From a virus, in IMG/VR virus record IMGVR_UViG_3300050821_017219, positions 1-64,000 of that record: a DNA stretch of 64,000 nucleotides. The stretch is one strand, 5' to 3'. Shown one piece after another: positions 17,122 through 64,000 of the stretch. Numbering within the stretch: the stretch's first letter is position 1; each line of letters opens with the position of its first letter. The notes beneath the pieces are model-generated. The model did no database searches, was not told the DNA's origin, and saw nothing but the letters and a program-made list of their open reading frames with translations. The translations under genes and the position numbers were made by a program.

Positions 17122-17148
17122 CGTCTGAATTCCGAAAGCAAAATTCCA

Positions 17149-26304: not shown

Positions 26305-27858
26305 ATGGCCGGAACACTCATCGTTCGTCGAGCTCGCGTCGTCACCAACGTCGGCTCGGGTAGCGGCAACGGCGCAACCGGCGCAACTGGACCGGGCGGA
26401 GGCGCGACTGGACCGACGGGGGCGACAGGTGCAACCGGGGCCGTCGGCGCATCAGGTGCCACGGGTGCTTTCGGTGTCACCGGCGCTACGGGGCCGACCG
26501 CACGCACGCCGCTTGGCGCAGTCAGATTCATCGATCCATCCAACTCATCTGGCCTGGCGTCAGACAGCAACAACGGCGCAACCAACGTAACGCCAATTCT
26601 GACGACAGCGCATCTCAATAACCTTCTGTTCTTCAAATCGCTGACGGCCAATACGACGATTACGTATATGAGCGACGATCTTAGCGGCGTTGGGTTGGAT
26701 TATTCAACGATGGCGTTGGGCAATTTCAACTTGACGTTTCAGATGACGCCGGTCGTTACGCATACGGGTGGAACGCTCAACGCCGGCACGGTCGCGATCA
26801 ATCCGTTGGCGGCGTCTGGCGGTCAACGCCAAGTCGTTCATACTTCCGACGTTGTGACGTTCAATCCGTTTGTCTTTACAGGATTGGGCGGAGCGTCGGC
26901 GCATCCACAACGACTCGTCGCGACGAGTGGAGGCGACGTCAATACTGGCGCGTGGATCGTCTCAGCAACAACCCCAGCTTCGCCGTCGATGTCTCGGTCA
27001 ATCACGCCTGGTGGAACCAACGGCAATCTAACGATTGGCGACACCTACAAGATTCAGCGTGGGGGGATCATCAACGTCACGCAAGGCCAACCTCCCACAC
27101 AAGACGCCGGGCCGTCTGGAGGTGGCGGTGGTCTAGTGTTCTTCAACGACGCCGCCTTTGGCCTAACGAGCTGGGGCATCGGAGGTATACAATACGCCCG
27201 ATGTAGCTTTGAGAATTCACTTGTCGTTGCTGCGGGTCTTACCGATTGCTTCGTCGGCGCTGGTATTATCGAGATTCTACCGATTGGATCTATCTCGATG
27301 ACAGCCGGTGTTCTTGTGACGACTATCTTCGATTTACTTCATTCGTCCATTAGTTTTGCTGACGATACGTACATCACCGGATCAGCCTTTATTCTTTCGG
27401 GCAACGTCTATGGTAGCGTAACGGCTCTGCCAGGTAGTGGTAACGGGATTCAAATCCAAGATATGACGAACCCTACCGGCGCGCTCATCGTTTTGACCGC
27501 CATCCCGTTTGCGAATCAGACGGGGTCGCCGTCGAACCCGCTCATCTGGGGAAACGGTAACGTCGGACCGGGTATCACGATCGGACCGGGAGCGTGTATC
27601 ACGGTGGCTGACGAGGTTGGGGTTGTACCGAGCGTCACCGGAACCGGCGGAGACTTCGCATTCATCGCCGAAAATAGCGGACCGCTTGTGACGGTAGCGC
27701 GCGCTTGGAACAACGCGACGGGCGCCTACACGGAAGCGGGGGGCGTTGCGACCAGAACGACGACCTGGGCGCATTTCGCTGCTAGTATCTCCCCCGGTGG
27801 CGGTTTTCTCTTTCAAGCGCATAACGTAGCGACAGCAGCGTCAATCATTGCGGTCTGA
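26305..27858 (+). CDS. Collagen-like fibre with beta-helix region
   Basis: A 517-residue protein beginning MAGTLIVRRARVVTNVGSG, the shared fibre tag. Residues 22-68 are GXY repeats. From residue 70, VRFIDPSNSSGLASDSNNG is a typical entry to a right-handed beta-helix, followed by long beta-rich coils. Paired with the upstream transglycosylase-like gene; probably a receptor-binding or depolymerising spike. Confidence 0.75.
   Translation: MAGTLIVRRARVVTNVGSGSGNGATGATGPGGGATGPTGATGATGAVGASGATGAFGVTGATGPTARTPLGAVRFIDPSNSSGLASDSNNGATNVTPILTTAHLNNLLFFKSLTANTTITYMSDDLSGVGLDYSTMALGNFNLTFQMTPVVTHTGGTLNAGTVAINPLAASGGQRQVVHTSDVVTFNPFVFTGLGGASAHPQRLVATSGGDVNTGAWIVSATTPASPSMSRSITPGGTNGNLTIGDTYKIQRGGIINVTQGQPPTQDAGPSGGGGGLVFFNDAAFGLTSWGIGGIQYARCSFENSLVVAAGLTDCFVGAGIIEILPIGSISMTAGVLVTTIFDLLHSSISFADDTYITGSAFILSGNVYGSVTALPGSGNGIQIQDMTNPTGALIVLTAIPFANQTGSPSNPLIWGNGNVGPGITIGPGACITVADEVGVVPSVTGTGGDFAFIAENSGPLVTVARAWNNATGAYTEAGGVATRTTTWAHFAASISPGGGFLFQAHNVATAASIIAV
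26368..26508 (+). repeat. Collagen-like GXY coding repeat
   Basis: About fifteen Gly-X-Y triplets in the shaft of the 517-residue fibre protein. Confidence 0.75.
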
Positions 27859-40848: not shown

Positions 40849-41019
40849 ATGCCTGACGAATTGGTGGGTCAATCAGAAGGATTCGATCTTCATCGAATTC
40901 TACTGATCCTAGGTGGAATGGCCTTCGTTATGCCGTTCTCGGTGGCATTCGTCTATTCTCTTGCGTGGCTAGTAAAGCGAGTCGACAACGAATTGTATCG
41001 TCGTGGTTACCGCAAATGA
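40849..41019 (+). CDS. Small membrane protein (56 aa)
   Basis: One or two membrane segments (RILLILGGMAFVMPFSVAFV) with a basic C-terminus. Its TGA overlaps the ATG of the polymerase gene (ATGA), which fixes both genes. The role beside a polymerase is unclear. Confidence 0.6.
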   Translation: MPDELVGQSEGFDLHRILLILGGMAFVMPFSVAFVYSLAWLVKRVDNELYRRGYRK

Positions 41020-50831: not shown

Positions 50832-51377
50832 ATGACAGCCACGACAACGCCGACGCCGGTGACGCCAGAAGCCGCCGATGACATCGTCGACTTCGACGAG
50901 CGAAAATTCGAGACGCAGGAAGACTTCTCGAAGGCGCTCTTCAAGGAGATCCTCGATCGATCCGGCCTGGATTCGTTCGGAGACGTCCCGATCCCCAAGC
51001 GCGCCGTGTGGGAAGACCCCGGTGGGTCGCTGATGAACATCGAGATCAACGAGCCGTCGCCCTTCGACAAAAACTCCATCGTACTTGGGCTCTTCCACGA
51101 CGATGAAGAGGTGCGTGTCTATACCCTCCCGAAACAACGAGGCGAAGCGAAGCGCTACTGTCTCTCCAAGCGCGGTCGCACGTTCGTCGTCGAGACCTTC
51201 TCGTCGCTCGAGATGATCATCGACTCGTTGGCCGAAGAGTATCACGTCTTAGGTATCACTACCGAAGTCATCGACGACGATGACGACGACGACGAAGACG
51301 AAACTCCAGCGAATGGCGTCACAAACGATGGCGTTGCTGCAACGCCTTCGTCGGCAACGCCGTCGGTGACGTCGTGA
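50832..51377 (+). CDS. Acidic hypothetical protein (181 aa)
   Basis: The ATG at 50832 follows GGAGAAAG and is chosen over a TTG at 50817. Alpha/beta core (residues 25-135) with a run of acidic residues (EVIDDDDDDDEDE) and a Thr/Ser/Pro tail. Possibly a virion or assembly protein by position; no family. Confidence 0.6.
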   Translation: MTATTTPTPVTPEAADDIVDFDERKFETQEDFSKALFKEILDRSGLDSFGDVPIPKRAVWEDPGGSLMNIEINEPSPFDKNSIVLGLFHDDEEVRVYTLPKQRGEAKRYCLSKRGRTFVVETFSSLEMIIDSLAEEYHVLGITTEVIDDDDDDDEDETPANGVTNDGVAATPSSATPSVTS

Positions 51378-52183
51378 ATACCACCGTCACGTGCGTCTAT
51401 CGCATCGCGCAAGGCGGCGCGGCGTTGACGACGCTTCAGTCGAAGGTCGCCGCCGTCGTCGTCAACTCTTCCATTCTGTCGACGCTCGGCGCGCGTATCA
51501 CGAGCGACGTCACTACCATCGCCGCCGGTTTCGCCATCCGAACCATCGTCTTTTCGATCGTGCCGACGGTCGCAGCCGGCGCGACGGCAGCGCTCAACTC
51601 CAACGACTTCCTCTCCGGCGTGTCGGTCTTCTCGGCCGGCTCTGACTACATTCTGCCGCCCGTCGTCAAATTCGCTGGTGGAAACCCCTACAAAATCGCG
51701 TCGGCGCGCGCGACGTTGAAGGCCGTCGGCGTCAACGTCGTCGCTGGTGGCTCAGGCTATACCGCAGCGGCGGTCGCAACAGCCGTCGGTGCGATCAACC
51801 CCAACCATGACATCAAGCTCGGCCAAGCCCCACCGAAGCCTGTCTTGATGACGTTGACGCTTGGCGGTGGCGGAGCCATCGTCGGCGTCGCCATCACCGA
51901 TGCGGGCGCTAACTACGAAGGCGTTCCCTCGGTTGTCGTCACCGACGTCGTTGGGGGTGGAAGCGGCGCCATCATCGATCTGTCGATGGGCGTCAGCGCC
52001 GTCGATGTGATCTACCCCGGGCAAGGCTTCCAGGCGGTTCCGGCGTGTCAGCTGATCCCAGCCTTCCGTGTGATGTTCCCCGACGGACCTTCGCAGGCGG
52101 CACCTTTCGCGAACCTCATGACGACGGCGATTGCGCAAGCAGTGATGACGCCGGTCGTTGCGGATGCGCCGGTGTTGTCATGA
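51374..52183 (+). CDS. Beta-rich putative virion protein (269 aa)
   Basis: GTG start overlapping the preceding stop. Repeats of the type GGSGYTAAAV and DAGANYEGVPSVVVTD resemble the GxGYxxxP.V beta repeats seen in viral spike and fibre proteins. No membrane segment. A structural role is inferred. Confidence 0.55.
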   Translation: MNTTVTCVYRIAQGGAALTTLQSKVAAVVVNSSILSTLGARITSDVTTIAAGFAIRTIVFSIVPTVAAGATAALNSNDFLSGVSVFSAGSDYILPPVVKFAGGNPYKIASARATLKAVGVNVVAGGSGYTAAAVATAVGAINPNHDIKLGQAPPKPVLMTLTLGGGGAIVGVAITDAGANYEGVPSVVVTDVVGGGSGAIIDLSMGVSAVDVIYPGQGFQAVPACQLIPAFRVMFPDGPSQAAPFANLMTTAIAQAVMTPVVADAPVLS

Positions 52184-53685
52184 CGCGCGAAGATGACAAC
52201 TACGACGAGCGAGACGACGATGACGGCGAAGGCGAGCCGCCTGAAGAAGTCGTCGAAGCCAAAACGAAGGCAATACCGCCGAAGAAGCGCAATCCGAAAG
52301 CGCGAAACGGCGTCGGTGGAGCGTTGGGTGGTGCGCCCGAAGATTCGCCGCGTGAAGCTGAGCTGCTCTGGCTGTGGATTCTCGCGCGACTTCCCAGCGA
52401 AGGCCGCTCCGCCTACGACGTGACCATCCAAGTCTTGCAGCTCGATCCACCCGCCTCAAACGGCCGCGCCTTCATGGTGGGAAGCTTCGGCGGTGGCGCA
52501 ATCCGCGGCAGCGAAACTGTTGATCCGTCGCAGGCGTTGATCAGCTACGTCACCGACAACTTTCACATGCCGCGGTCTCAGTCGAGACAGTCGGTGACCT
52601 ACCAGATCCGCTTCATCTGGGCATCGAACAGCCAGCAGATGAAGCGCGGCGAGCTGACGCTTCCCCCGCGCGACGAGATCATCGCCGTTCGACAAGAAGA
52701 GGCGCGCCAGCGGCAGGCCAACGGCGAGCCGGTGACCCCCTACAACCCGCCGCCGATGCATCAGCAAGGCGTCGGTGTGCCGCAACCATGGCCGCAGCCG
52801 TTTGGCTTTCCGCCGTCTTACTACCCCCCGCCTGCCGGTGGCGATGCGCAGATGATGCCGCAGCTGCTGACGATGATGCAGGAGATGTGGCGCGCGCAGC
52901 TCGAAGGCCGCCCACCCAATCCCGCAGCTGCCGGTGTCGCTGCGCCACCACCCGCGCCTCTCAACGAAGACAGCATCGTACAGAAAACGACCGCCAGCGT
53001 CTTGATGGCGCTGCAGCAAGCCGGCATCTTGACGAAGCCAACCGCCGGTGTCGCCGCCGCAACGCCAACGCCTGCGGTCTCGCCTGCGTCGCCGGCTGCA
53101 TCGAATCCATTCGCAGGCATGATGGAAAAAGCCGTCGGTCGCATGTTCGAGGCGGCCGTCGGTGAGGTGGAGAAAAGCGTCAAGAAGACCATCGCTGGCG
53201 TCGGCAAGCCGCAAGACGACGACTATTACTTCGACGACGATGACGATGGAAAGAAAGGCGGATCATCTTCGCCTGCATCTGCAGCCGTTGGCGTTGGCGC
53301 GCCACCGACACCGCCGAAAGAAGACGCCTTCGATCTGCCGTGGGCGACGAAGCCAGTCGCCGATGCGAAGTGGGGCGACGGCCGCCCAGTCGTCTACGCC
53401 GAAGACAAAGAGACCGGCAACTTCTCGTGGCAGGGCGCGCTCATGAGCAACCCCACCGTGCTCGAGAAGGGGATGGAAGCCGCGCAGGGTCTCGCCGGAG
53501 CGTTGACGAACATCGTGAAGCAGGTCGGCGCCAAAGCTTCCGCCGGCTTCGCGCAGGCGCCGCAGAATCCGCCGCCGCAGATGACGCCGAAGACGGTTTC
53601 GATACCGCCTGCCGCAACGGTTGTGGCGGAGACGCCCGCGGGCGCGGTGGATGCGACGCCAAAGTCTTGGAAAGACGGCGACTAG
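52180..53685 (+). CDS. Pro/Ala-rich putative structural protein (501 aa)
   Basis: Begins in an ATGA overlap. Residues 1-50 are very acidic then basic, and about 55-170 form a folded domain (ELLWLWILARLPSEGRSAYD, VTYQIRFIWAS). The remainder is Pro/Ala/Gln-rich low complexity with a DDDYYFDDDDDG run. It may be a scaffold or flexible virion component. No family recognised. Confidence 0.55.
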   Translation: MTREDDNYDERDDDDGEGEPPEEVVEAKTKAIPPKKRNPKARNGVGGALGGAPEDSPREAELLWLWILARLPSEGRSAYDVTIQVLQLDPPASNGRAFMVGSFGGGAIRGSETVDPSQALISYVTDNFHMPRSQSRQSVTYQIRFIWASNSQQMKRGELTLPPRDEIIAVRQEEARQRQANGEPVTPYNPPPMHQQGVGVPQPWPQPFGFPPSYYPPPAGGDAQMMPQLLTMMQEMWRAQLEGRPPNPAAAGVAAPPPAPLNEDSIVQKTTASVLMALQQAGILTKPTAGVAAATPTPAVSPASPAASNPFAGMMEKAVGRMFEAAVGEVEKSVKKTIAGVGKPQDDDYYFDDDDDGKKGGSSSPASAAVGVGAPPTPPKEDAFDLPWATKPVADAKWGDGRPVVYAEDKETGNFSWQGALMSNPTVLEKGMEAAQGLAGALTNIVKQVGAKASAGFAQAPQNPPPQMTPKTVSIPPAATVVAETPAGAVDATPKSWKDGD

Positions 53686-53706: not shown

Positions 53707-55047
53707 GTGACAACGACGCCGCATTGGCCGCAGGTAGTGGTGCCGCGCCGTGTCGGTGTCGCCGGTCTGACCGATTTTGAGGCGCACTTCGCGTCCGACC
53801 CCAACTTTGCGTCGGCGTGGAACGATGTCGGTGGCCAGCTCCTCGCCGAAGGCGCTAGCAGCTCGCAGGTCGACCAAGCGAAGACGTGGTTCGTCAACGC
53901 CGTCGAGGGAGCTGTCCCTGGGGTAACCGGCGACCAGGCCATCGCCTCCGCGAAGCAGCTCGTGCTGCTTGGGCAGACGGTCATGGGCGCCGTCGCTACG
54001 GTGCAAGGTCTTCTCCAGACCGTCGAAAGTGGGTCGGTCCCACAAATTACGCAGGCGTTTACCGGCGTCTTGATCAGCCTCGGCGTCGGCACTGGGTTAG
54101 TCTCGGCCGGTATCGGCGCGGCCATCGCGCTCGGCATCTCCGTCGTGTTGGCGGCGCTTCAAGACCTTGGATTTTTTACTAGCAACGCCCCTCCGACATT
54201 TGACATCCCTGGGTGCGGCAAGTGGTACTGGGTGCCGGACTACCTCATCGGATGCATGGGCGTTCAAGCGAAGGGCGGCACTGCCAACGATCCGCTCTTG
54301 ACGCAACCCTTTCATGTCGCGCCGGGCTCCCCCAACTGGCGGACGTTCCCGGTGCCGGGCAACATCATCCCATACGTCGAAGGCGCGGACAAAGAATGGT
54401 ACGTCCCTGGGTTGGGGATGGTTGGCCACTGGAAGGGCATCTTCATCGACTACGGCGCCGTCGATGCAAGCGATGGGCGGCGGCCGATCGATCGCGCGTT
54501 TCCGAATTTTCGGCAGCTCGAAGCGGACAGCGGACCGGGAGCAAGCGACTTCCAGCGCGCGTTCGGTGGCGCATGGCGAAGCAACGCGGAGTATGCGTTC
54601 AACGGGTTGAAGCCGCAGCCAGACGAACAGGTGCTGCTCCATACCATTCGATTGTGGAACCGTTCGCACGATGGCCCCGCAGTTACGCTCGATCAAAGCA
54701 ACGCGACCTACGCCAATTCGCTCGTCGACGCCGCCGTCAACAACGTGATGTCGAGTGACATCGGTTTGCTGTCTGGCCAAAGCTTGCTCGTCAACGCCGG
54801 TGGGTTGAAAACCCAAACGCCACGTGTCGTCACGCTGCATCTAGGCGGTAGTTTCGATTCAGCGACGTCGCCAACAACCGGCCTTATGTCGTCGACGGGT
54901 GGAAAAATTCTCGCGGGTACAGCTGCAATCGGCGGCGCCGCACTGCTCGGAAGCGCGGCGTACGCCTTCGCAAAGAAAGAGAGCATCGGCGCCGTCTGGA
55001 AGAACGTCTTCAAGACGGTGACGAAACCTCTGAGAGGTGGAAGATGA
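53707..55047 (+). CDS. Putative virion membrane protein (446 aa)
   Basis: A 446-residue protein. Residues 115-155 contain two hydrophobic stretches (GVLISLGVGTGLVSAGIGAA, IALGISVVLAALQDLG). A central soluble domain (CGKWYWVPDYLIGCMG onward) is rich in Trp, Pro and Asn. A C-terminal membrane segment (ILAGTAAIGGAALLGSAAYA, about 399-418) is followed by a basic end (KPLRGGR). No family recognised; it begins the run of TM proteins. Confidence 0.6.
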   Translation: MTTTPHWPQVVVPRRVGVAGLTDFEAHFASDPNFASAWNDVGGQLLAEGASSSQVDQAKTWFVNAVEGAVPGVTGDQAIASAKQLVLLGQTVMGAVATVQGLLQTVESGSVPQITQAFTGVLISLGVGTGLVSAGIGAAIALGISVVLAALQDLGFFTSNAPPTFDIPGCGKWYWVPDYLIGCMGVQAKGGTANDPLLTQPFHVAPGSPNWRTFPVPGNIIPYVEGADKEWYVPGLGMVGHWKGIFIDYGAVDASDGRRPIDRAFPNFRQLEADSGPGASDFQRAFGGAWRSNAEYAFNGLKPQPDEQVLLHTIRLWNRSHDGPAVTLDQSNATYANSLVDAAVNNVMSSDIGLLSGQSLLVNAGGLKTQTPRVVTLHLGGSFDSATSPTTGLMSSTGGKILAGTAAIGGAALLGSAAYAFAKKESIGAVWKNVFKTVTKPLRGGR

Positions 55048-55370
55048 GACGAAGACACGGTCGTAGAAATCCTTCGACGCAAACGACGACGCTGCTGATC
55101 GCCGGTGGCGGTTTGGCGCTGCTCGGCGTTGGCGTCTACCTCTTCACGAAGAAGCCAGCGGCGGCGACAACGACGACTGCGATCACGGCGACGTCACCAA
55201 ATTCTCGACCGTTCGGTGACCCCGCCAACACGTCGAGCGTCGCGTTCGCGTGCAACACCTGCTGGAAGCTGAACGCACTCGGCCATCCGACGCAGGCGAC
55301 GGCGTGGTGCACGAAATGCACCGCCAACGGTGGGGTAGTACCGCAAAGCGCTGCTCAGTTGTATACTTGA
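55044..55370 (+). CDS. Basic N-terminus, TM, zinc ribbon (108 aa)
   Basis: ATGA overlap with the preceding gene. MRRRHGRRNPSTQTTT leads straight into a membrane segment (LLIAGGGLALLGVGVYLF), then a Thr/Ala linker and CNTC ... CTKC, a zinc ribbon. The order Arg-rich, NP, TM also occurs at 63016 and 24955-25452. Probably a virion membrane protein with its basic end facing nucleic acid. Confidence 0.6.
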   Translation: MRRRHGRRNPSTQTTTLLIAGGGLALLGVGVYLFTKKPAAATTTTAITATSPNSRPFGDPANTSSVAFACNTCWKLNALGHPTQATAWCTKCTANGGVVPQSAAQLYT

Positions 55371-55418
55371 GGCGCCGGTAGTCATTTTTGACGGCGACGC
55401 AAGACGAAAAGATAAAAA

Positions 55419-55775
55419 ATGGCCGACATTTACGACACGCTGACCCCCGCCGACCAGGCAACGGTTCGCTCGAAGCTGCTCGCGATCGTGCAGTCGAAGC
55501 CCTGCCCGAACGTCGACGTGACAGGCATCACCACCGTCGACAGCCTCACCAGCGCGGACAATCGCGGCATCGCCATCGATTGCTTCCAGCAAGCGCACAA
55601 GGTTGGCGCCGTCGCAGGCGCGCTCGATCAGGCGACTTACAGCGCGCTCGTCGGATGGTGGCCCGCGCGGCCGTTGTGGCAGAAAGCGGCGATCGTCGGC
55701 GGAGGCGTCGCAGCGGTGGCGGTTGGATACCATCTCATGGCGAAGCGAAGCCGTCGGCGTCGGCTAAGTCGTTGA
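55419..55775 (+). CDS. C-terminal-TM protein (118 aa)
   Basis: Residues 1-85 form a soluble helical domain with one Cys (KPCPNVDVTG) and a possible peptidoglycan-binding-like pattern (LTSADNRGIAIDCFQQ). Residues 88-107 (QKAAIVGGGVAAVAVGYHLM) are a membrane segment, followed by a basic tail KRSRRRRLSR. Same tail-anchored, Arg-rich design as 25534. Confidence 0.6.
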   Translation: MADIYDTLTPADQATVRSKLLAIVQSKPCPNVDVTGITTVDSLTSADNRGIAIDCFQQAHKVGAVAGALDQATYSALVGWWPARPLWQKAAIVGGGVAAVAVGYHLMAKRSRRRRLSR

Positions 55776-55783
55776 TGTAAACG

Positions 55784-55799
55784 TCTGAAATTTCAGACA
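55784..55799. promoter_or_regulatory. Perfect 16-bp palindrome
   Basis: GTCTGAAATTTCAGAC lies in the 66-base gap between two virion genes. The symmetry suggests a dimeric repressor site or a short RNA hairpin; no T-run follows. Confidence 0.4.
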
Positions 55800-55841
55800 A
55801 TTTTCAACTTTCAAACGCAAAAACAACCAAACGAGACTCCG

Positions 55842-56240
55842 ATGACGAAGAAACATCAGACGTACATGATCGTTGGTGGCGTCGCGCTCGCGGCGCTCGC
55901 CGTCGGTGGCATCGCCTACGCGCGCATGAAGGCGGCAGCGCCTCCAGTTCCTGCCGGTCAGCTTCCCGCCGGGACCCCCGCGACCACTTTCACCGCCGGT
56001 ACGAAGTACACCTTCGCCGCCGTCCTCCCCGCGGGCGCGACCGACCAGGCGACGCTCGTGACGATGCTCCACACCGCAGGGTGGCAGACGCCTGCGGTCA
56101 TCTTCTTCGGTCCGACGAACACCGGAACGATTCCGACCGGTCTCGAGGCCAACACGTCGGGGTACGTCGCGACGGGCATTTGGCAGGGCCCCGCCACACC
56201 GGTACCGGCGGGTGTCATCGCTGTCGTGTCGCCTCCGTGA
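55842..56240 (+). CDS. N-terminal-TM protein (132 aa)
   Basis: Residues 8-27 (TYMIVGGVALAALAVGGIAY) form an N-terminal membrane segment after a Lys-containing tip, then a Pro/Ala linker and a beta-rich domain of about 90 residues. Signal-anchor topology would place the domain outside the membrane. Overlaps the next gene by GTGA. Confidence 0.6.
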   Translation: MTKKHQTYMIVGGVALAALAVGGIAYARMKAAAPPVPAGQLPAGTPATTFTAGTKYTFAAVLPAGATDQATLVTMLHTAGWQTPAVIFFGPTNTGTIPTGLEANTSGYVATGIWQGPATPVPAGVIAVVSPP

Positions 56241-56641
56241 TCGACGCTGCGGTCTCCTCACAGCTTTCGACGCTTCGCTTTCGGCAAAGTCTCGTCGACG
56301 CTGCGCCATCGCCCGGCGGCAGTAGCGAAATCGTCGCGCTCGTTCCGTTCAACTTCGCGACGACGACGTTGGTGCTCGGCCCAATCCACGCTGGGTGGGT
56401 CGTCAACGAGGTCGTCTACGACATCCTGACGCCCTTCGCTGGCGCAACGGCGCTGAAGTTCGGCACGTCGACCAACGCGAGCCTCTTCTTCGAGCTCGAT
56501 ACCCCCATCATCGGCATCGCGCAGCAGTACGTTTCTCCGCTCATCATCGTCGCTCCGATCAACGATATCCTGCTGTTGAACGTCAGCGGTGGCGCTTTGG
56601 CGGGCGCAGGTTTACTGTTCTACCGGATCTTCACGCCGTAG
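56237..56641 (+). CDS. Beta-rich putative virion protein (134 aa)
   Basis: GTG start in a GTGA overlap. Alternating hydrophobic strands (NFATTTLVLGPIHAGWVVNE, PLIIVAPINDILLLNVSGG) suggest a jelly-roll or beta-sandwich. Candidate minor capsid or penton-type protein by size and position; unproven. Confidence 0.55.
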   Translation: MIDAAVSSQLSTLRFRQSLVDAAPSPGGSSEIVALVPFNFATTTLVLGPIHAGWVVNEVVYDILTPFAGATALKFGTSTNASLFFELDTPIIGIAQQYVSPLIIVAPINDILLLNVSGGALAGAGLLFYRIFTP

Positions 56642-56651
56642 GTAAGACCAG

Positions 56652-57467
56652 ATGGCGAACGCATTTCAACGACTTGCCGGCGTCATCGCCAACTTCTTCC
56701 AGATCGGCGGCCCCGCCGGCCCCGGCTGGAACGCGAACGGCGGCGCCATCGAAGGCCGCAACGCCGCCAATTCAGCGTTTGCGATCGTTCGGGGCGCGAC
56801 CCCCGTCGGCGACAACGACCTGACGACGAAGACCTACGTCGATACGATCTTCAAGCCGATCCCCGTCTCGCTTCAGTTCAACGGTGGCAGCGCGCTGCCG
56901 AGCAACAGCGGCACCGAGCAGTACTACGTCGTCACGACGACCGGGGTCAACGCGACCATCGGTCAAGTTCTCTGGGATGACGGGTCTGGCGTTGGAACGG
57001 TCACCGTCCTTCCCGCGAAGACGGGCAACGAGATCGTCACGACGGCTTCGTTCTCTGGCGGCACGATCACGCTTCAGTCGAACCAAAACTACGTCTGGTC
57101 CGGTACGGCGTGGCTCAACATCTCCCCCTCGGTTGCTGGCGCGCTCCTCTGCATCCGTCTGCCGATCACCAATGCGGCATCGCAGAGCTCCGCCACAACG
57201 ATCCCCGCCAACGCCGTCGTCGCGCGAGCGCTCCTCAACATCACGACCCCCTACTCCGGTGGCGCGACCATCTCCGTTGGCCAAACAGGATCGACGGCGC
57301 TGCTGATGGCGACGGGTGACAACGTCGCGACGCTCGCCAACATCTACGACGCCCCCCAAGACACCGCGTGGGGCGCGAGCGCGCTGGCGTTGCTCGTGAC
57401 CGTCGGTGGCGCGCCAGCTGCAGGTGCTGGCTTCGCGGTTGTATATTACAGCATCCCGCAGGTTTGA
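56652..57467 (+). CDS. Beta-rich virion protein candidate (271 aa)
   Basis: An N-terminal helix leads to FFQIGGPAGPGWNANGG, a tag shared with the gene at 57490. DNDLTTKTYVD (about residues 56-66) is a motif frequent in viral structural proteins, and the remaining 200 residues are beta-rich, ending GFAVVYYSIPQV. A capsid or spike component is possible; family not recognised. Confidence 0.6.
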   Translation: MANAFQRLAGVIANFFQIGGPAGPGWNANGGAIEGRNAANSAFAIVRGATPVGDNDLTTKTYVDTIFKPIPVSLQFNGGSALPSNSGTEQYYVVTTTGVNATIGQVLWDDGSGVGTVTVLPAKTGNEIVTTASFSGGTITLQSNQNYVWSGTAWLNISPSVAGALLCIRLPITNAASQSSATTIPANAVVARALLNITTPYSGGATISVGQTGSTALLMATGDNVATLANIYDAPQDTAWGASALALLVTVGGAPAAGAGFAVVYYSIPQV

Positions 57468-57489
57468 CGCATGCAACTTCGAGTCTGAG

Positions 57490-57744
57490 ATGAGCGGTTT
57501 CAACAACAACAGCGGCACGACGCAGTCGTCTTTCGAGATCGGCGGCCCCGCCGGACCGGCGCTGCAAAGCGATCCGCTCGTTCAAGCGATCAATCTGCTC
57601 GACCCGACGGGAACGATCCTTCTCGCACTGCGAGCCGGTTGGGCCGTCAACCCCAACGACGTCGTGACGCTCGTGCGGCTGCAATCGATTCTGAATCCAC
57701 CGCCGCCGTTGGGCGATCCATGGGCGTCTTCTTCCGCAGGATGA
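57490..57744 (+). CDS. Small protein with IGGPAGP tag (84 aa)
   Basis: Contains SSFEIGGPAGPALQSDP, the tag found near the N-terminus of the preceding gene, then a helical segment and a Pro-rich end. No good ribosome-binding site. May be a truncated or diverged relative. Confidence 0.5.
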   Translation: MSGFNNNSGTTQSSFEIGGPAGPALQSDPLVQAINLLDPTGTILLALRAGWAVNPNDVVTLVRLQSILNPPPPLGDPWASSSAG

Positions 57745-57757
57745 TGGGGATGACATC

Positions 57758-58489
57758 GTGAGCCAACAAGGACCGACCGGCTTCATCACCTCGCAGGGGC
57801 TGCCCAACCCGAAGCTGCCCGATGGCCAAGGCGTGTTGGCTCGTGTTGGACCGCACCGTGAGGTCTACACGAACCTTGTGCTGCCCGACTTCAAGACGTC
57901 GGCGGACGAGGGGAGCTACTTCACGGGAACGAACGCAACGTTTGGCGCGGCTATAGCCGCAGCAAATCAAGCGGCCTTCTCGGCGACGTCGGCTATCTTC
58001 ACCTTCTTGAACAAGGCTGGCGTCGGTGGGCCGCGAACCTATCTCGACTACATCCGTTTGATTTGCACGGCAGCTGGAACAGCGTCGGCGAGTATGCAAA
58101 TCGGCGTCGTTACCGACGCGATCGTACGTGGAAGCGCCGGAACCCCCGTGACGTTGGTGTCGCCCAACCAAGACGCTGGTGTCGGCGCGAACACGCAAGT
58201 GCTCTACACCCCGACGGTAGCGGCTGCAGGTCTTGCTGCGAGAAACGTCGATCGCGCTTGCGCCAAAGGCGCAGGACTCGCGATAGGCGATGAAATTCTG
58301 CTCGTCTTCGGAACCGTCGAGAAGTCAGCGAGCGCCGCATTCGCTGCAACAGCCGGGCGATTCGTGGTGCCGATGGCTCCAGTCATCCTTGGGCCTGGCA
58401 GCGTTCAGAGCGCCGTCATTCATGCGTGGTTTCCGAGTATCACCGCAGCAGCATCGTTCGAGTTCGCCGTTGGTCTCCTCGAACGTTGA
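57758..58489 (+). CDS. Beta-rich putative capsid protein candidate (243 aa)
   Basis: GTG start. After a Pro/Gly-rich N-terminus the protein alternates beta strands with Ala-rich segments (GAAIAAANQAAFSATSAIFTF, GLAIGDEILLVFGTVEKS) and ends AASFEFAVGLLER. Length and composition would fit a single jelly-roll capsid protein, but no family match can be named by eye. Confidence 0.5.
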   Translation: MSQQGPTGFITSQGLPNPKLPDGQGVLARVGPHREVYTNLVLPDFKTSADEGSYFTGTNATFGAAIAAANQAAFSATSAIFTFLNKAGVGGPRTYLDYIRLICTAAGTASASMQIGVVTDAIVRGSAGTPVTLVSPNQDAGVGANTQVLYTPTVAAAGLAARNVDRACAKGAGLAIGDEILLVFGTVEKSASAAFAATAGRFVVPMAPVILGPGSVQSAVIHAWFPSITAAASFEFAVGLLER

Positions 58490-58515
58490 TTGTCAAGCGC
58501 TTTCGCTGCTAGACT
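58486..58515 (+). promoter_or_regulatory. Promoter TTGATT-N18-TAGACT, leaderless type
   Basis: TTGATT (58486-58491) and TAGACT (58510-58515) have an 18-base spacer, near the sigma-70 norm. TAGACT ends seven bases before the ATG at 58523, leaving no room for a ribosome-binding site. Confidence 0.5.
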
Positions 58516-58522
58516 GACACCC

Positions 58523-58999
58523 ATGGCGAAGAAACCCGAGCAAGACCGCGCTCTCATCATCGTCGGCATCGTCGGCGCTGCTGCGGTCGTCGGAGGGGCG
58601 CTCTACTTCGCCTTCACGTCGCAGCCGAAGACAGCGACGGCATCGCAGGCCAACCCCACCCCGACGCCGCCAACGACCGACACCGCTTCGGCGACTCCGC
58701 CAACGCAAGCGCCGTCGTCGACGACTTTCGCGATGCAAGTCACCGGCGACACGTCGATCGCGCTGAAGAGCGGTGAATCTGTCGCGCTTTCGTTGCCAAC
58801 CGTTCCTGCGCCAGCGGCGATGTGGCAGGTCGTCATGGAGAACCACGACGGTCGTGCGGAATACACGGTGGTGGATGCGACGCACTTCAACGTGATCGCA
58901 GAGATGCCCGGCGTTTCGGTGCTGCGGTTCACCCCCATCAGCGCGCAGGGCGGATCGATCGGCCTTCCTGGCCTCAACATTACGCTGTCGATCAGCTGA
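58523..58999 (+). CDS. N-terminal-TM protein with beta domain (158 aa)
   Basis: MAKKPEQDR is followed by a membrane segment (ALIIVGIVGAAAVVGGALYF), a Thr/Pro/Ala linker and a C-terminal beta domain of about 90 residues. The start at 58523 follows a leaderless-type promoter. Overlaps the next gene by one base (TGATG). Confidence 0.65.
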   Translation: MAKKPEQDRALIIVGIVGAAAVVGGALYFAFTSQPKTATASQANPTPTPPTTDTASATPPTQAPSSTTFAMQVTGDTSIALKSGESVALSLPTVPAPAAMWQVVMENHDGRAEYTVVDATHFNVIAEMPGVSVLRFTPISAQGGSIGLPGLNITLSIS

Positions 59000-59421
59000 T
59001 GAGCGCCTGGACGGGCATCATCATCGGCGGTCTCGTCGGTGGAGGCTTAGGTTTCGTCGCGACGAAATTCTTGTTGAAGAAGCCTGACGCTGGCGTCATC
59101 GGCGCTGCCGCAGCTGCGGGCGCGCTCGCCGGTGGCGCGTTGACCGCGACCCCCGCAACCGCCTCGTCGTCACCGACGTTGCACATGCTCTTGTTGGCGC
59201 ACGGCGACACCGCCCTCGCGACGAAGATCGGCGACGTCGTCGATTTGCTTCCCGCCGCTGGTTTGACGGTGAGCGCCATCGACGCGCATGGCAGCGACGC
59301 CATCGTCGTTGCGTCGGTCAATCCCGCCACCGTCAATGCGGTGAAGCTCGGCGGTGCGCTGCTGGCGGTGACGCTTTCCGACGCGTCGAAGGTCAACGTC
59401 AAAATCACCGTCGCCGCTTGA
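58999..59421 (+). CDS. Two-TM-segment protein with beta domain (140 aa)
   Basis: MSAWTGIIIGGLVGGGLGFVATKFLLKK starts with a Gly-rich membrane segment; a second Ala/Gly-rich hydrophobic stretch (GVIGAAAAAGALAGGALTA) follows, then a beta domain that resembles in pattern that of the preceding gene. The two may be duplicated. Confidence 0.6.
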   Translation: MSAWTGIIIGGLVGGGLGFVATKFLLKKPDAGVIGAAAAAGALAGGALTATPATASSSPTLHMLLLAHGDTALATKIGDVVDLLPAAGLTVSAIDAHGSDAIVVASVNPATVNAVKLGGALLAVTLSDASKVNVKITVAA

Positions 59422-59453
59422 CTTTCGACGCTAGCGGCGTCTTGCGGTAGACT
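59418..59453 (+). promoter_or_regulatory. Promoter-like TTGACT-N24-TAGACT, leaderless type
   Basis: TTGACT (59418-59423) and TAGACT (59448-59453) are separated by 24 bases, and TAGACT ends seven bases before the ATG at 59461. The spacing equals that of the minus-strand element at 25459-25494. Confidence 0.5.
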
Positions 59454-59460
59454 GAACGCC

Positions 59461-59727
59461 ATGGACATCAATGGCGGCGCTAAGGTAGGGCTCGCGACGG
59501 TGCTCGGAGGCGGCGCCGGTCTCGTCTTCGGGTTCTTCGTCGGTGAAATCCTCGACGTGAAACGTCCCGGTCAAATGTCGCTGGCGTTGGCGGCGCTGGG
59601 TGGGCTCACCGGCGCGATGGTCGGCGGAACCTTTGTCGCTCCGACGCCTGCGTCACCGACAACTCCGGCTCTGCAGCCCATCGCTTCGACGGCCGTGACG
59701 ACTCCGCCGACGCCTGCGACGCCGTAA
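59461..59727 (+). CDS. Gly-rich two-TM protein (88 aa)
   Basis: Two hydrophobic segments (LATVLGGGAGLVFGFFVGEI and LALAALGGLTGAMVGGTFVA) separated by a short polar loop, then a Pro/Thr tail. Possibly a membrane curvature or channel-like virion protein; no family. Confidence 0.6.
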   Translation: MDINGGAKVGLATVLGGGAGLVFGFFVGEILDVKRPGQMSLALAALGGLTGAMVGGTFVAPTPASPTTPALQPIASTAVTTPPTPATP

Positions 59728-59731
59728 AAAG

Positions 59732-62035
59732 ATGAGCGACTTCTCGCCTTCGCTGCAAAACGCGGCCGCCGCCGGTATCCCGACGACGCGGCAGCCGTAT
59801 CTCGACGGCAACGCTGGCGTTCGCCAGAGCCTCGAAGCGATGGCGCTGAAGATGCGCGAGGGCCGCGTTGATCCTGCGGTAGTCGGTTGGGCGGGTGGCG
59901 TTTTGAAGGATGCGGGGTTGGACGGTCGCGACGGCTTTCCGATCCGTCGTCAAGTCTCGGCGTTGCTCGAAGCGTTGCGCAGCCAAGTCATTTACGCGCC
60001 CGATGCGTACGGCGCTGAAGTCGTGTCGAGCGCGGCTGCAACGCTCTGTCTACGACCGAACCTCTGTCTTCACCGCGGCGACTGTTTCCCGAGCGGGACG
60101 TTGCTTCTTCGAGAAGACTACGAGCTCGTTCCGATCGAAAAGATCAAGGTAGGCGAGCGAATCTGGGGGCTCGACGGTTGGACGACCATCAAAGCGACCG
60201 CCTTCAAGGGCAACCTCGCCGTCGACGCGATCGAGATGAACAACGGCTCGACGATGTTTTTGACCGGCGAGCACAAGGTCTTCGTCGGGCGATGCAAACA
60301 CGATCGGACGATCTGCCCGTCGTGCTATCCGGCGCTACGACGAGAGCGCTTCGAGCGGGTCTCTGTTGCGGACCTTCAAGAAGGAGAGGTTCTTCTTCAA
60401 CCCGAGCGAATCGCCTTCGGCTCTGAAGAACCAGATCCCGGACGCATGTATATCGAAGGGCTGTACATCTCCGACGGTTGGTCGGAAGAAAACCGCTTCG
60501 CCATCTCCGGCAAGGACGGCTGTCGAAAAGAAGCGCAGAAGCACGAGGTCAAAGCGATCTGTGAGCGGCTCGGCATCCCGACCTACTGGCACAAGAGGTA
60601 CATCCGCATCAACGATGCCGCATGGGCCAATCGTCTAGCGCAGCGTGGAACGCGTGCACGCTTCAAGCACATCGAGACGCTCAACCTCAACGAAGCCGCC
60701 GCCGAAGCACTGCTCCGCGGGGTTATGGCCGACAGTACCGCGAACACGAACGGCCCCGGTCGAACATTCTCGACGACGTCTCGAGAGCTGATGGTTCAGA
60801 TGCGCATCTTGCAGCGCATGTTCGGCGTATCGACGGGGCTCAAAATGTTGACCCCCGCGCAACACGGCGGCGTTGGAACGCATAATCTGTGGCGTCTCGG
60901 CGTCCGAGCGACGAACGGCCGTACCGAAAAAACGCTGGCCGTGAAGTCGATCGACCGCGCCGTCCGAAAGGTTCCGTGTTGGGACATCCAGACGGAAGAC
61001 CACTACGTCTACCTCGCCGAGCATGATGTGACGGTCTCCAACTGTGACGATCTCGCCGTCGCGCTTGGTTCTGCAACCCTTTCGTTGGGCATTCCGACCG
61101 TCATCGTGAAGCAAAACTTCGGCGGCGAAAATCAAGAGCATGTTCTCATCGCCTTCCAGGACGAGAACCAAGAGTGGACCTACGCTGATCCCTCGACGAA
61201 GCTTCCCGTCGGTCGCGCACCGCAAGGTGCCGTCGATGAGATCTGGATCGACCCGATGGGGCCGGTTGGACCGATTCCAGAGGCTGGCGCTGAAATCGTC
61301 ACGCTTGGATCTGCGATAGCGTCTTCGTTTTCGTCTGAGATTCATTCGCCAGTCGAAAGACGGATGCATTTCGCCGGCAACCATTGGTGGCATCACGATG
61401 CGTCGGGTGTCTCTGTCTACGTCGACGACGCATGGCTTTCGACAGGTCTCTCTGGAATCCCTTCCGAAGTCGGCGTCGGCACCATCTTCGGTGCGCCAAC
61501 GGTCAACGAGATGATCGATTTCGCTTCGGTGGTCGGCGCCGAGATGAAAGACATCGGCGCGGTACCGACGACGTGCACCGGTTGGCCGAAAGACCCCGTC
61601 GGCTACCAAGCGTGGCTGATGGACATGCAAGACACGATGGCCGAGTTTCAGACGGCGAGCGACGCAGCGTTGGCGAAATTCAACTCGACGTCGAAGTATC
61701 TGCGCGACTTCACGTCGGCACCGGAGGAAATGAACGCGCTCGCCGATGTGGCTCGACAAATCACCGACTTGGATCGCCGACTGCGCGCAGCAACGGGTGG
61801 CGCCGGTTGCTCGGCCCCGACCTACGCCGACGTGCAGCAACCCCAGGCTATCGATTGGGACCTGCAGGGCTATCAAGGCGCCGACTTCGCCGCGAAGGTC
61901 GTCGAAAACGCCGGCAAAAAAATCGCAGGCGCGGCGCAACCAGCGGGCATCGCGTTTGGTGGTCTCATCGTCGGCGCTGCGCTCGCCGTCGCCGGCTTGA
62001 TCGTGTTGGACCACATGCTGCCGTCGCGTCGTTAG
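59732..62035 (+). CDS. Transglutaminase-like membrane protein split by an intein
   Basis: A 767-residue precursor; the mature extein would be 447 residues. Residues 1-117 are helical and end LCLHRGD. An intein fills residues 118-437. The downstream extein starts at Cys438 (CDDLAVALGSATLSLGIPTV), then ENQEHVLIAF and WTYADPSTKLPVG give the Cys-His-Asp triad of the transglutaminase/peptidase fold. A C-terminal membrane segment (GIAFGGLIVGAALAVAGLIV) and a basic end (LPSRR) follow. Splicing would rebuild the active-site GDC. It may act as a virion-bound peptidase in entry or maturation. Only four bases separate it from the preceding gene. Confidence 0.85.
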   Translation: MSDFSPSLQNAAAAGIPTTRQPYLDGNAGVRQSLEAMALKMREGRVDPAVVGWAGGVLKDAGLDGRDGFPIRRQVSALLEALRSQVIYAPDAYGAEVVSSAAATLCLRPNLCLHRGDCFPSGTLLLREDYELVPIEKIKVGERIWGLDGWTTIKATAFKGNLAVDAIEMNNGSTMFLTGEHKVFVGRCKHDRTICPSCYPALRRERFERVSVADLQEGEVLLQPERIAFGSEEPDPGRMYIEGLYISDGWSEENRFAISGKDGCRKEAQKHEVKAICERLGIPTYWHKRYIRINDAAWANRLAQRGTRARFKHIETLNLNEAAAEALLRGVMADSTANTNGPGRTFSTTSRELMVQMRILQRMFGVSTGLKMLTPAQHGGVGTHNLWRLGVRATNGRTEKTLAVKSIDRAVRKVPCWDIQTEDHYVYLAEHDVTVSNCDDLAVALGSATLSLGIPTVIVKQNFGGENQEHVLIAFQDENQEWTYADPSTKLPVGRAPQGAVDEIWIDPMGPVGPIPEAGAEIVTLGSAIASSFSSEIHSPVERRMHFAGNHWWHHDASGVSVYVDDAWLSTGLSGIPSEVGVGTIFGAPTVNEMIDFASVVGAEMKDIGAVPTTCTGWPKDPVGYQAWLMDMQDTMAEFQTASDAALAKFNSTSKYLRDFTSAPEEMNALADVARQITDLDRRLRAATGGAGCSAPTYADVQQPQAIDWDLQGYQGADFAAKVVENAGKKIAGAAQPAGIAFGGLIVGAALAVAGLIVLDHMLPSRR
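60083..61042 (+). mobile_element. Intein with LAGLIDADG endonuclease domain
   Basis: 320 residues. It begins CFPSGTLLL (N-terminal Cys1, block A), has NGSTMFLTGEHKVFV (block B with the TxxH-like site) and ends CWDIQTEDHYVYLAEHDVTVSN before extein Cys438 (blocks F and G). The last two residues are Ser-Asn, so the usual penultimate His is replaced. Two LAGLIDADG-like helices are visible: YIEGLYISDGW and AEALLRGVMADS. CKHDRTICPSC is an added Cys cluster. Probably a homing intein that targets the codons of the catalytic Cys. Confidence 0.85.
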
Positions 62036-62042
62036 GCGTCGA

Positions 62043-62507
62043 ATGATCATCGTCAAAGGGAAGGCAGTCAGCTTCGACATGGCGAACGGCGACGAAATCG
62101 ATGCGCCAGCGCGCTCGGCGATGTTGCACGATCCGCGCGGCAAATTCTGGCGTCGAAATTCTATTCTTGTTGCGCCATTCAAACGCGGCGGCGGTGGTGA
62201 AGTCGACGGCGACAGCGACTCGAAAGACTATCTCGGCCGAACGCATCTGACGCGCGTCGGTGATGTACCGCTTCCCCCGAAAGAGTTGTCGGCCTGGACG
62301 TACGAAGGCGAAGTGAGCGAGATTTGGTACACGCGTCACGGCGCAAAGTACGGCGGCAAGCGGTTCCGCCACGCGTTCAACAAGTCGTTGCTCGGCCGGC
62401 TCGTGAAGGGAACCGGCAAGGCGCGGCTGTACAGCCGTGGTAGTCTCTACCGATTGGAGCTACCGCGCGGCGCCATTGTCGATGGGAGAGGATTTTTATG
62501 GCCGTGA
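62043..62507 (+). CDS. Hypothetical basic protein (154 aa)
   Basis: Alpha/beta, rich in Lys, Arg and Gly, with GRTHLTRVGDVPLPPKEL and a basic C-terminal half. Overlapped by ten bases by the HNH gene, suggesting insertion of the latter. No family. Confidence 0.55.
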   Translation: MIIVKGKAVSFDMANGDEIDAPARSAMLHDPRGKFWRRNSILVAPFKRGGGGEVDGDSDSKDYLGRTHLTRVGDVPLPPKELSAWTYEGEVSEIWYTRHGAKYGGKRFRHAFNKSLLGRLVKGTGKARLYSRGSLYRLELPRGAIVDGRGFLWP

Positions 62508-63019
62508 TCTGGAAGTCTGTCGTCGGTTACGAGGGGTTGTACGACGTCTCTGACGAAGGACAGATCCGGCGTGTGGCGCCGGGGCGACGTACACACCCCG
62601 GGCGTATCGTTGTCGGTGGCGTCTCGAAGGGGCGTTACCGCATCGTCAAACTCTATCGAGGAACGACGAAGAGCGACTTCCGCGGGTTCTCCGTTCACGG
62701 TCTCGTCGCGGCAGCCTTTCTTGGCCCGCGTCCGGAAAGGGGCGAGGTGAACCACAAGAACGGCATCAAGACGGACAACAGGCTCGAGAATTTAGAGTAC
62801 ACAACCCGCCTCGGAAACGCGCGCCACGCAGCAGTGAACGGGCTGCTCCGAAACGGCGAACGAGTCGTCGGCTCCAAGCTTACGGCCGACAATGTTCGCT
62901 CCATCCGCGCTCTGTCCGCTTTTGGCGTTCCGAAGCGACGGATCGCGAAGATGTTCGGCATCGCGCATTCGACCACGCAAAGCATCATCGACCGTCGTTG
63001 GTGGAAGCACGTCGCATGA
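62498..63019 (+). CDS. HNH homing endonuclease (NUMOD4-HNH)
   Basis: A 173-residue protein. WKSVVGYEGLYDVSDEGQIR at the N-terminus is a NUMOD4 DNA-binding motif. VNHKNGIKTDNRLENLEYTT is the HNH_3 nuclease core. A C-terminal helix-turn-helix (SAFGVPKRRIAKMFGIAHST) gives sequence specificity. Such free-standing homing endonucleases spread between related phages. It sits near the intein and overlaps both neighbours. Confidence 0.85.
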   Translation: MAVIWKSVVGYEGLYDVSDEGQIRRVAPGRRTHPGRIVVGGVSKGRYRIVKLYRGTTKSDFRGFSVHGLVAAAFLGPRPERGEVNHKNGIKTDNRLENLEYTTRLGNARHAAVNGLLRNGERVVGSKLTADNVRSIRALSAFGVPKRRIAKMFGIAHSTTQSIIDRRWWKHVA

Positions 63020-64000
63020 TCGATTATTCGCGCATGATTGACGCCAGCCGCAACGCGCCCGAACACGCGGCATCTGCGCCCGTCTTCTACGAAACAGCGA
63101 AGACGAAGACGCGCGCGCGTAGCCGTCGTTTGACAAAGCGCAAGAAACAAGCTTCACTTACAAAAGCGCGCGACCGGAAATCCACGAACCGTCGTCGTCG
63201 AAGCACCCCAGGGAAGGCTGCATCGATGGCAAAGCGAAGAATGTCGAGAAAGCAGCGCGCAGCGGCGCTGAAGAACCTCAAGAAGGCTCGCTCCGCCCGT
63301 CGGAGCAAAGCTTCTCGGCGCGGGATGCGCGTTCGGCTTCATCGGAAGTCGCCCCGTCGGCGCCGCTACATGACCGGCGGTGGTGTGAAGACGAAGCGTC
63401 GTCGTCGCCGCAAGGCCAAGCCGGAAGCAGAAGCAACACCGAAGCGTCGTCGGCGTAAGTCGGGCGGCAAGCGGAAGTCGGCCAAGCGAGTCGCGGCTGG
63501 CAAGAAGGCCGCTCGTACGCGCAAGCGCCGTCACTCCCGCAAGGGTGGCGCACCGAAACGCCGTCGTCGTCGGTCGCGCAAAGCCTCGGCGGCTCCCCGG
63601 CGGCGGCGTCGGCGTTCACGTCGGTCGTCTCCCCGTCGTCGTCGGCGCAGCCGCAAGACCGGTCGGGCGATGTCGATGCGACTCCCCCGTCGGGCGCGCA
63701 AGGTCTACGTCGTCGCCGCCGAGAAGCGCCGTCGTCGTGGACGCGGCCGTCGTCGTCACGGCGCGATGGAAAATCCGCTCTCTGGCGTCGAGCTGTTCGT
63801 CGGAAGCCTCTTCGGGTTGACCGGCTTCGCCATCGGCGATCTCACCGACCGCCTCATCGCGACCCACGCGTTGACGTTGAAGAGCGCCGCGACCACCACC
63901 ACGCCGGCCCTCTACGCCGACAACCCCCCGACGACCGGCAGCTACGCTGGCCTCTTCAATCCGACGGCGATCACTTCGCCGATGAACCTCCCCCGATGGG
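63016..64000 (+). CDS. Protamine-like Arg/Lys-rich protein with TM, partial
   Basis: Starts in an ATGA overlap with the HNH gene and runs off the right edge (328 residues visible). Residues 33-245 are dominated by Arg and Lys with Ser/Ala/Gly, in runs such as RRRRRRSRRSSPRRRRR, like histone H1 tails or protamines. Then GAMENPLSGVELFVGSLFG leads into a hydrophobic segment (about 252-276) and a Thr/Ser-rich continuation. It would bind and condense DNA while tied to a membrane. Low complexity makes homology claims unsafe. Confidence 0.7.
   Translation, partial: MIDYSRMIDASRNAPEHAASAPVFYETAKTKTRARSRRLTKRKKQASLTKARDRKSTNRRRRSTPGKAASMAKRRMSRKQRAAALKNLKKARSARRSKASRRGMRVRLHRKSPRRRRYMTGGGVKTKRRRRRKAKPEAEATPKRRRRKSGGKRKSAKRVAAGKKAARTRKRRHSRKGGAPKRRRRRSRKASAAPRRRRRRSRRSSPRRRRRSRKTGRAMSMRLPRRARKVYVVAAEKRRRRGRGRRRHGAMENPLSGVELFVGSLFGLTGFAIGDLTDRLIATHALTLKSAATTTTPALYADNPPTTGSYAGLFNPTAITSPMNLPRW

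What the first reader, a model, noticed from the sequence alone, without database searches (positions are those of the whole stretch)
53707..64000. Cluster of small TM proteins suggests a membrane-containing virion
At least eight genes in 53.7-64 kb encode one or two TM segments, many Gly-rich and next to Arg/Lys-rich ends. With the TM-anchored transglycosylase at 25534, collagen-like spikes and no tail genes in view, the set resembles PRD1-type internal-membrane viruses (TM-anchored transglycosylase P7, collagen-like TNF-headed spike P5, many tiny membrane proteins), but in a genome several times larger than PRD1's 15 kb.
Basis: inference. Interest (0 to 1): 0.82.

Follow-up and report, generated by a model that had tools for sequence, protein, structure and literature searches.

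The report
Large tailless, probably membrane-containing bacterial virus
The window belongs to a previously undescribed family of bacterial viruses with large genomes (complete ones 67-80 kb, fragments up to 125 kb) that lack every standard tailed-phage packaging gene tested and carry a conserved set of capsid-like and membrane proteins, so they are probably tailless viruses with a membrane, several times larger than the known ones of bacteria.

Summary
In detail: 53.7-64 kb is rich in small proteins with hydrophobic segments (12 of 15 genes against 14 of 88 elsewhere). The window is the first 64 kb of a 78,382-bp record that closes on itself (97-bp terminal repeat). Just beyond it (64.7-67.7 kb) lies a three-gene cassette (455, 249, 283 aa). 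Relatives occur in 41 other IMG/VR contigs of up to 125 kb, in the same order wherever checked; six genomes, the window's included, are closed at 67-80 kb. The cassette has no detectable relative among 50,697 phages, Pfam, PHROGs or the PDB. No terminase or portal was found in 18 records, all six closed ones included. Hydrophobic segments cluster around the cassette in seven of eight genomes, and several membrane proteins share a new N-terminal signature (basic stretch, Asn-Pro, hydrophobic segment). A tailless, probably membrane-containing virion is well supported. PRD1 kinship is not shown: no jelly-roll homology was detected, and five of the six closed genomes lack any FtsK/HerA ATPase. A new large-genome lineage that works like, but is not shown to be, a PRD1-type virus.

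The parts
13656..14249 (+). Collagen-like protein with BclA_C (TNF-like) head: probable spike
   Evidence: Gly-X-Y repeats in the sequence; Pfam BclA_C E=1.5e-7, 31.8 bits, just under the curated cut-off of 38; 61% identical in G004
14482..17121 (+). Collagen-like protein with a pectate-lyase-like stretch: probable fibre
   Evidence: Gly-X-Y repeats; Pect-lyase_RHGA_epim E=4.4e-7
17149..18042 (+). Collagen-like protein: probable fibre
   Evidence: Pfam Collagen E=5.4e-7; N-terminal VRRSRV motif
18078..19820 (+). Collagen-like protein: probable fibre
   Evidence: Gly-X-Y repeats and N-terminal [11 protein letters not shown] motif
25534..26271 (+). Transglycosylase-like protein with C-terminal TM and RNRRRR tail
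   Evidence: PHROG hits over residues 14-160 (phrog_4928, phrog_196); TM 209-227; 47% identical in closed G003
26305..27858 (+). Collagen-like protein: probable fibre
   Evidence: Gly-X-Y repeats; 47-49% identical in G002 and G003
48635..50773 (+). Protein with C-terminal RadC/JAB domain, start of the conserved block
   Evidence: Pfam RadC E=6.6e-17; the domain region is conserved in all eight genomes compared
51374..52183 (+). Gly-rich, probably beta-rich structural protein
   Evidence: Homologues at the same place in G001-G005 and G008
52180..53685 (+). Conserved 501-aa protein of unknown role, acidic and Pro-rich
   Evidence: Homologues in G001-G005 and G008; no family
53737..55047 (+). Conserved 436-aa protein with hydrophobic segments: probable membrane protein
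   Evidence: the homologue is on the opposite strand relative to its neighbours in G001 and G003
55044..55370 (+). Small TM protein with basic-NP-TM N-terminus (MRRRHGRRNPST...)
55419..55775 (+). Small protein with C-terminal TM and Arg-rich tail
55842..56240 (+). Small N-terminal TM protein
   Evidence: 48% identical in G001 and G003
56237..57467 (+). Two proteins (56237-56641, 56652-57467) with hydrophobic stretches, probably beta-rich fibre-type rather than TM
   Evidence: Homologues beside a collagen-like gene in G004; reading of the sequence
57758..58489 (+). 243-aa protein of the same fibre-type group
   Evidence: 53% identical in G004 at 17345-18079, beside a collagen-like gene
58523..59727 (+). 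Three small TM proteins (58523-58999, 58999-59421, 59461-59727)
   Evidence: 59461 conserved in G001-G003
59732..62035 (+). Transglutaminase-like enzyme with C-terminal TM, split by an intein (about residues 119-437)
   Evidence: Hint and LAGLIDADG_3 hits; intein absent from relatives; Transglut_core E=2.6e-4 in the relative; invariant Cys, His, Asp
62043..62507 (+). Conserved 154-aa protein of unknown role
   Evidence: Homologues in G001-G006 and G008
62998..64000 (+). Protamine-like (Arg/Lys-rich) domain followed by AMENPLS and a TM-like segment; the ORF runs on to record base 64548, start codon not determined. The three-gene cassette follows outside the window, in the same numbering: 64707-66074 (455 aa, candidate major capsid protein; L001:4708-6075), 66103-66852 (249 aa; L001:6104-6853), 66858-67709 (283 aa; L001:6859-7710)
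   Evidence: Sequence; conserved upstream of the cassette in most relatives; cassette order in all loci checked

Best explanation
The region is the virion module of a large, tailless, probably membrane-containing dsDNA phage family that is absent from the annotated collections searched. Proposed working: the 455-aa protein is the major shell protein, and the 249- and 283-aa proteins are further shell or vertex parts. The small TM proteins sit in a virion membrane; several begin with a basic stretch, Asn-Pro and a TM segment, perhaps a common topology, sorting or cleavage signal. The protamine-like domain of the 62998-64548 protein faces and condenses the DNA. Collagen-like spikes, one with a BclA/TNF-like head, bind the host surface; the membrane-anchored transglycosylase-like protein opens peptidoglycan at entry; the membrane-anchored transglutaminase-like enzyme matures or cross-links the particle. 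Shown: cassette conservation and order, the protein architectures, TM clustering, the NP signature, and absence of detectable terminase and portal and (in five of six closed genomes) FtsK/HerA ATPase. Inferred: capsid function, membrane in the virion, DNA condensation, the enzyme roles, and how the DNA is packaged, which remains open.
For: Closed genomes of 67-80 kb without terminase or portal. Three-gene cassette conserved in order across very different genomes and cassette proteins found in 41 contigs. TM clustering around it in seven of eight genomes. Basic-NP-TM signature: 16 hits against 0-9 for 44 control dipeptides, most of them commoner. Protamine-like plus TM protein upstream of the cassette in most members. 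Transglutaminase-like protein with invariant Cys/His/Asp. Transglycosylase-like TM protein. Collagen plus BclA_C spike. GroES and IF3_N genes fit a bacterial host.
Against: No structure and no proteomics: capsid role rests on conservation, gene order and absence of alternatives. No sequence similarity of the cassette to any known capsid protein. Shuffling shows that composition alone yields about half of the TM-like segments. No packaging motor was identified. The protamine-like gene was not seen upstream of the cassette in the subgroup that includes the 117-120 kb contigs (L055, L059/L061/L068, L060, L063), and TM enrichment was not significant in G006.
Confidence: 0.6

Rival explanations
1. 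A tailed phage (Caudoviricetes) whose head, packaging and tail proteins have diverged beyond recognition; the TM proteins are holins, spanins or superinfection-exclusion proteins.
For: Replication genes are of tailed-phage kind: PolA, D5-type primase, Dda-like helicase, ThyX. Genome size is typical of tailed phages. Weak PHROG hits of 51374 to head-closure and other virion proteins and of collagen-like proteins to tail fibres.
Against: No terminase or portal in 18 records, six of them closed; in closed G010 the only plausible Walker-A ORF is a RecD-like helicase. No known head or tail family among 40 unassigned proteins. TM proteins cluster at the capsid-like cassette.
Confidence: 0.12
2. A true PRD1/PM2-type (double jelly-roll, Bamfordvirae) virus or a Helvetiavirae relative, with sequences too diverged for detection, that lost or replaced its packaging ATPase.
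For: Same parts list as PRD1: TM transglycosylase, collagen-like spike with TNF-like head, many small TM proteins. The 455-aa length fits a double jelly roll (established knowledge of such proteins). The Odin group and FLiP also lack the ATPase (PMC5894146).
Against: No profile similarity to P3, P2, FLiP MCP, VP16 or VP17. Genomes are about 4-7 times the 7-18 kb published for such prokaryotic viruses. FtsK/HerA ATPase absent from five closed genomes.
Confidence: 0.4
3. A plasmid or integrative element, not a virus; the cassette forms a cell-surface or other assembly.
For: Tyrosine recombinase, RadC/JAB protein, collagen-like surface proteins, closed circles, no packaging motor.
Against: The 455-aa protein (L028 version) is absent from 72,556 plasmids. 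Replication genes match phage families. Glycoside-hydrolase-like and transglycosylase-like lysis-type enzymes. Relatives come from viral contigs apart from one MAG contig, though that collection was itself selected as viral.
Confidence: 0.1

Closest known systems
PRD1 (Tectiviridae) and other tailless membrane phages such as PM2 and Bam35
   Same: Small TM proteins beside capsid genes, TM-anchored transglycosylase, collagen-like spike with TNF-like head; no terminase of the tailed-phage kind
   Different: Genome 67-80 kb closed (to 125 kb in fragments) against 10-15 kb; no FtsK/HerA packaging ATPase in the window's genome; PolA instead of a protein-primed PolB; no detectable capsid homology
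Odin group and FLiP (double-jelly-roll viruses without packaging ATPase; PMC5894146)
   Same: No packaging ATPase found
   Different: Those have small genomes (the paper gives roughly 7-18 kb for all its viruses; FLiP 9.2 kb ssDNA); FLiP MCP shows no profile similarity; Odin-group proteins were not available for comparison
Thermus phage P23-77 and other Helvetiavirae
   Same: More than one shell-sized protein side by side, membrane proteins nearby
   Different: No similarity to VP16 or VP17; no ATPase of its kind; 17-kb genome
Caudoviricetes
   Same: Replication and recombination gene set, genome size, occasional HerA-like ATPase (tailed phage MW202482)
   Different: No terminase, portal or recognisable head or tail families

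Membership tests
[quoted passage not shown]
   No profile similarity to P3, PM2 P2 or FLiP MCP, but such folds often share no sequence; structure prediction switched off
Tectiviridae / Bamfordvirae (PRD1-type) | FtsK/HerA-superfamily packaging ATPase | tested here: not met
Tectiviridae / Bamfordvirae (PRD1-type) | Small genome (7-18 kb in prokaryotic members, PMC5894146) | tested here: not met
   Closed genomes of 67-80 kb
Tectiviridae / Bamfordvirae (PRD1-type) | Internal lipid membrane with small TM proteins | tested here: inconclusive
   TM genes cluster at the cassette; lipid itself is not testable by sequence
Tectiviridae / Bamfordvirae (PRD1-type) | Membrane-anchored transglycosylase and collagen-like spike with TNF-like head | tested here: met
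   25534; 13656 with Gly-X-Y repeats and BclA_C, just under the curated cut-off
Caudoviricetes | Terminase large subunit | tested here: not met
   phrog_2 none in 18 records; Terminase_6N and TerL_ATPase none in five
Caudoviricetes | Portal protein | tested here: not met
   PF04860 none in 18 records; other portal families only through PHROGs scans of the window genome's proteins
Caudoviricetes | HK97-fold capsid | tested here: inconclusive
   No significant PHROG or Pfam hit for the 455-aa protein; fold not predicted
Helvetiavirae | Two single vertical jelly-roll MCPs related to VP16/VP17 | tested here: inconclusive
   No profile similarity; structure untested

The most novel reading that the evidence does not exclude
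A separate high-rank lineage of bacterial dsDNA viruses: tailless, membrane-containing, with genomes of 67 to about 125 kb, its own capsid proteins unrelated in sequence to any known capsid, and DNA condensed by a membrane-anchored protamine-like protein instead of being pumped in by a terminase or FtsK-type motor.
Probability: 0.3. Interest if true: 0.95.

Novelty: new variant of a known kind. Interest (0 to 1): 0.85.

Why it matters
Published prokaryotic double-jelly-roll virus genomes are about 7-18 kb (PMC5894146). A widespread group with closed genomes of 67-80 kb and fragments to 125 kb, without terminase and mostly without an FtsK/HerA ATPase, would break the link between tailless phages and small genomes. 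It raises the question of how such a genome gets into a capsid, and might offer a bacterial counterpart to the large tailless DNA viruses of eukaryotes. The three-gene cassette gives a marker for finding such viruses: it was missing from every phage record and protein-family library searched here.

Tried and rejected
Profile searches of the PDB with A5-A7 and A12-A14 gave only chance-level hits. hhalign against PRD1, PM2, FLiP and P23-77 proteins gave no signal. AAA_24 protein (37884) as packaging ATPase: rejected, it looks like a Sak4-type recombinase and its G003 homologue has lost the Walker lysine. HerA-like ATPase as the packaging motor: rejected as the general motor because it is missing from five closed genomes and present in a tailed phage with its own terminase. 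Head-closure hit of 51374: discounted, it rests on a short Gly-rich stretch that also matches unrelated virion proteins. 56237 and 56652 as TM proteins: thought more likely beta-rich fibre proteins. Internal duplication of the 455-aa protein: no significant self-match. Literature searches found no description of this group in the open-access library, which holds only part of the literature.
Full report
What was checked. The window is bases 1-64000 of a 78,382-base IMG/VR record. I fetched the rest. The record begins and ends with the same 97 bases, so I take it as complete. Genes were called with a codon-usage dynamic-programming script.

The observation. In 53.7-64.6 kb, 12 of 15 called genes have a 19-residue segment with mean hydropathy >= 1.6, against 14 of 88 genes outside the 51.3-71.6 kb module (Fisher p = 2e-6). 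Shuffled versions of the same proteins give 6.5, so composition explains part of it. The pattern repeats around the homologous place in related genomes: pooled 106/246 near and 117/669 far, individually significant in seven of eight. About nine proteins in the range are convincing membrane proteins. 56237 and 56652 are, in my reading, beta-rich fibre-type proteins; in relative G004 the homologues of 56237-57758 lie beside a collagen-like gene.

The cassette. The gene block continues beyond the window. Three genes at 64707-66074 (455 aa), 66103-66852 (249 aa) and 66858-67709 (283 aa) have no match in Pfam or PHROGs and none in 50,697 phage genomes (and with relatives' versions of the 455- and 283-aa proteins 80, 105, 106). 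The 455-aa protein (L028 version) also has none in 72,556 plasmids. Pattern-plus-tblastn scans of IMG/VR found first three relatives, then more distant ones. With the 283-aa profile 23 contigs were found, and with the 455-aa profile 37. Together that is 41 contigs besides the window's own, some of them near-duplicates, up to 124.6 kb. One 4.4-kb contig of a Chloroflexota MAG also carries the cassette. In every locus checked the three genes stand in the same order (in L066 and L067 the 455-aa homologue is only a weak hit, E 0.02-0.03, at the expected place). For contigs found only the order was not checked. Six genomes are closed by terminal direct repeats: G000 78.4 kb, G003 76.0, G005 77.3, G006 79.6, G008 78.6, G010 67.0.

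What is missing. Terminase: Pfam Terminase_6N and TerL_ATPase none in five genomes, PHROG terminase none in 18 records. Portal: none in 18. Among 40 otherwise unassigned proteins of the window's genome no phage structural family was hit. FtsK_SpoIIIE: nothing over the cut-off in 18. HerA (DUF87): hits in six of 18. These are one protein of about 580 aa, clearly HerA-like, intact in some records and broken or cut in others, missing from closed G000, G003, G005, G006 and G010, and present in a tailed phage that has its own terminase and portal. It is therefore not a shared packaging motor. In closed G010 the only plausible Walker-A ORF is a RecD-like helicase. How the DNA is packaged is unknown.

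What is shared around the cassette. (a) A transglutaminase-like enzyme (59732; Transglut_core E = 2.6e-4 in its relative) with invariant Cys, His and Asp and a C-terminal TM; homologues lie in all eight genomes compared. In the window it is split by an intein placed just before the presumed catalytic Cys. (b) A protein with about 250 Arg/Lys-rich residues, then AMENPLS and a TM-like segment, directly upstream of the cassette; equivalents occur upstream in most members, but were not seen in the subgroup L055, L059/L061/L068, L060, L063. (c) Small membrane proteins that begin with a basic stretch, Asn-Pro and a TM segment. Counting NP preceded by at least five K/R in 14 residues and followed by a TM-like stretch gave 16 hits in six genomes; 44 control dipeptides, most of them commoner, gave 0-9. 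The threshold was chosen after seeing the first examples, and some hits are homologous to each other. (d) A RadC/JAB domain (48635) found in all eight genomes.

Interpretation. Established knowledge: PRD1 has a TM-anchored transglycosylase, a collagen-like spike with a TNF-like head and many small membrane proteins. Here the same parts list is found: a transglycosylase-like protein with a C-terminal TM, a collagen-like protein with a BclA_C head (E = 1.5e-7, 31.8 bits, just under the curated cut-off of 38) and the TM cluster. It most likely works like a tailless membrane phage. It cannot be filed as PRD1-type: the packaging-ATPase test fails and capsid homology could not be shown. Published prokaryotic double-jelly-roll genomes are about 7-18 kb, and only the Odin group and FLiP lack the ATPase (PMC5894146). 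GroES and IF3 N-domain genes point to a bacterial host.

Confidence. Tailless and not Caudoviricetes: about 0.85. Virion membrane: about 0.65. The 455-aa protein is the major capsid protein: about 0.8. Jelly-roll ancestry: about 0.45. These are my judgements, and the listed explanations overlap, so their scores do not sum to one.

Noticed in passing
window 59732-62035, residues about 119-437: An intein (Hint and LAGLIDADG domains) interrupts a transglutaminase-like virion-block gene just before its presumed catalytic Cys; the relatives lack it.
   Followed up: partly
window 41016-43586: Family A DNA polymerase fused to an N-terminal uracil-DNA-glycosylase domain.
   Followed up: no
record 70445-70756 (L001:10446-10757): A GroES/Cpn10 co-chaperonin gene (E = 1.8e-13), with homologues in most relatives.
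   Followed up: partly
window 34037-34396: Small protein with a translation initiation factor IF-3 N-terminal domain (E = 1.1e-14).
   Followed up: no
window 13656-19820 and 26305-27858: Five collagen-like proteins, most sharing a short N-terminal motif of the kind (T)LLVRRxRV, perhaps a common virion-attachment peptide.
   Followed up: no
window 53737-55047 and homologues in G001 and G003: A conserved virion-block gene that lies inverted relative to its neighbours in two relatives.
   Followed up: no
G003:8087-8881 (relative): The AAA_24/Sak4-like protein has lost the Walker-A lysine in this relative, although it is otherwise conserved.
   Followed up: no
window 34393-34704: Small protein similar (36%, E = 8e-10) to the C-terminal part of the D5-type primase at 32251-33966, as if a domain had been duplicated.
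   Followed up: no
window 47564-48094: Matrixin-like metallopeptidase (E = 1.1e-5).
   Followed up: no
window 8215-12477: Several lipoprotein-like ORFs whose style reminded me of Myxococcota (from memory, untested); the host is unknown.
   Followed up: no
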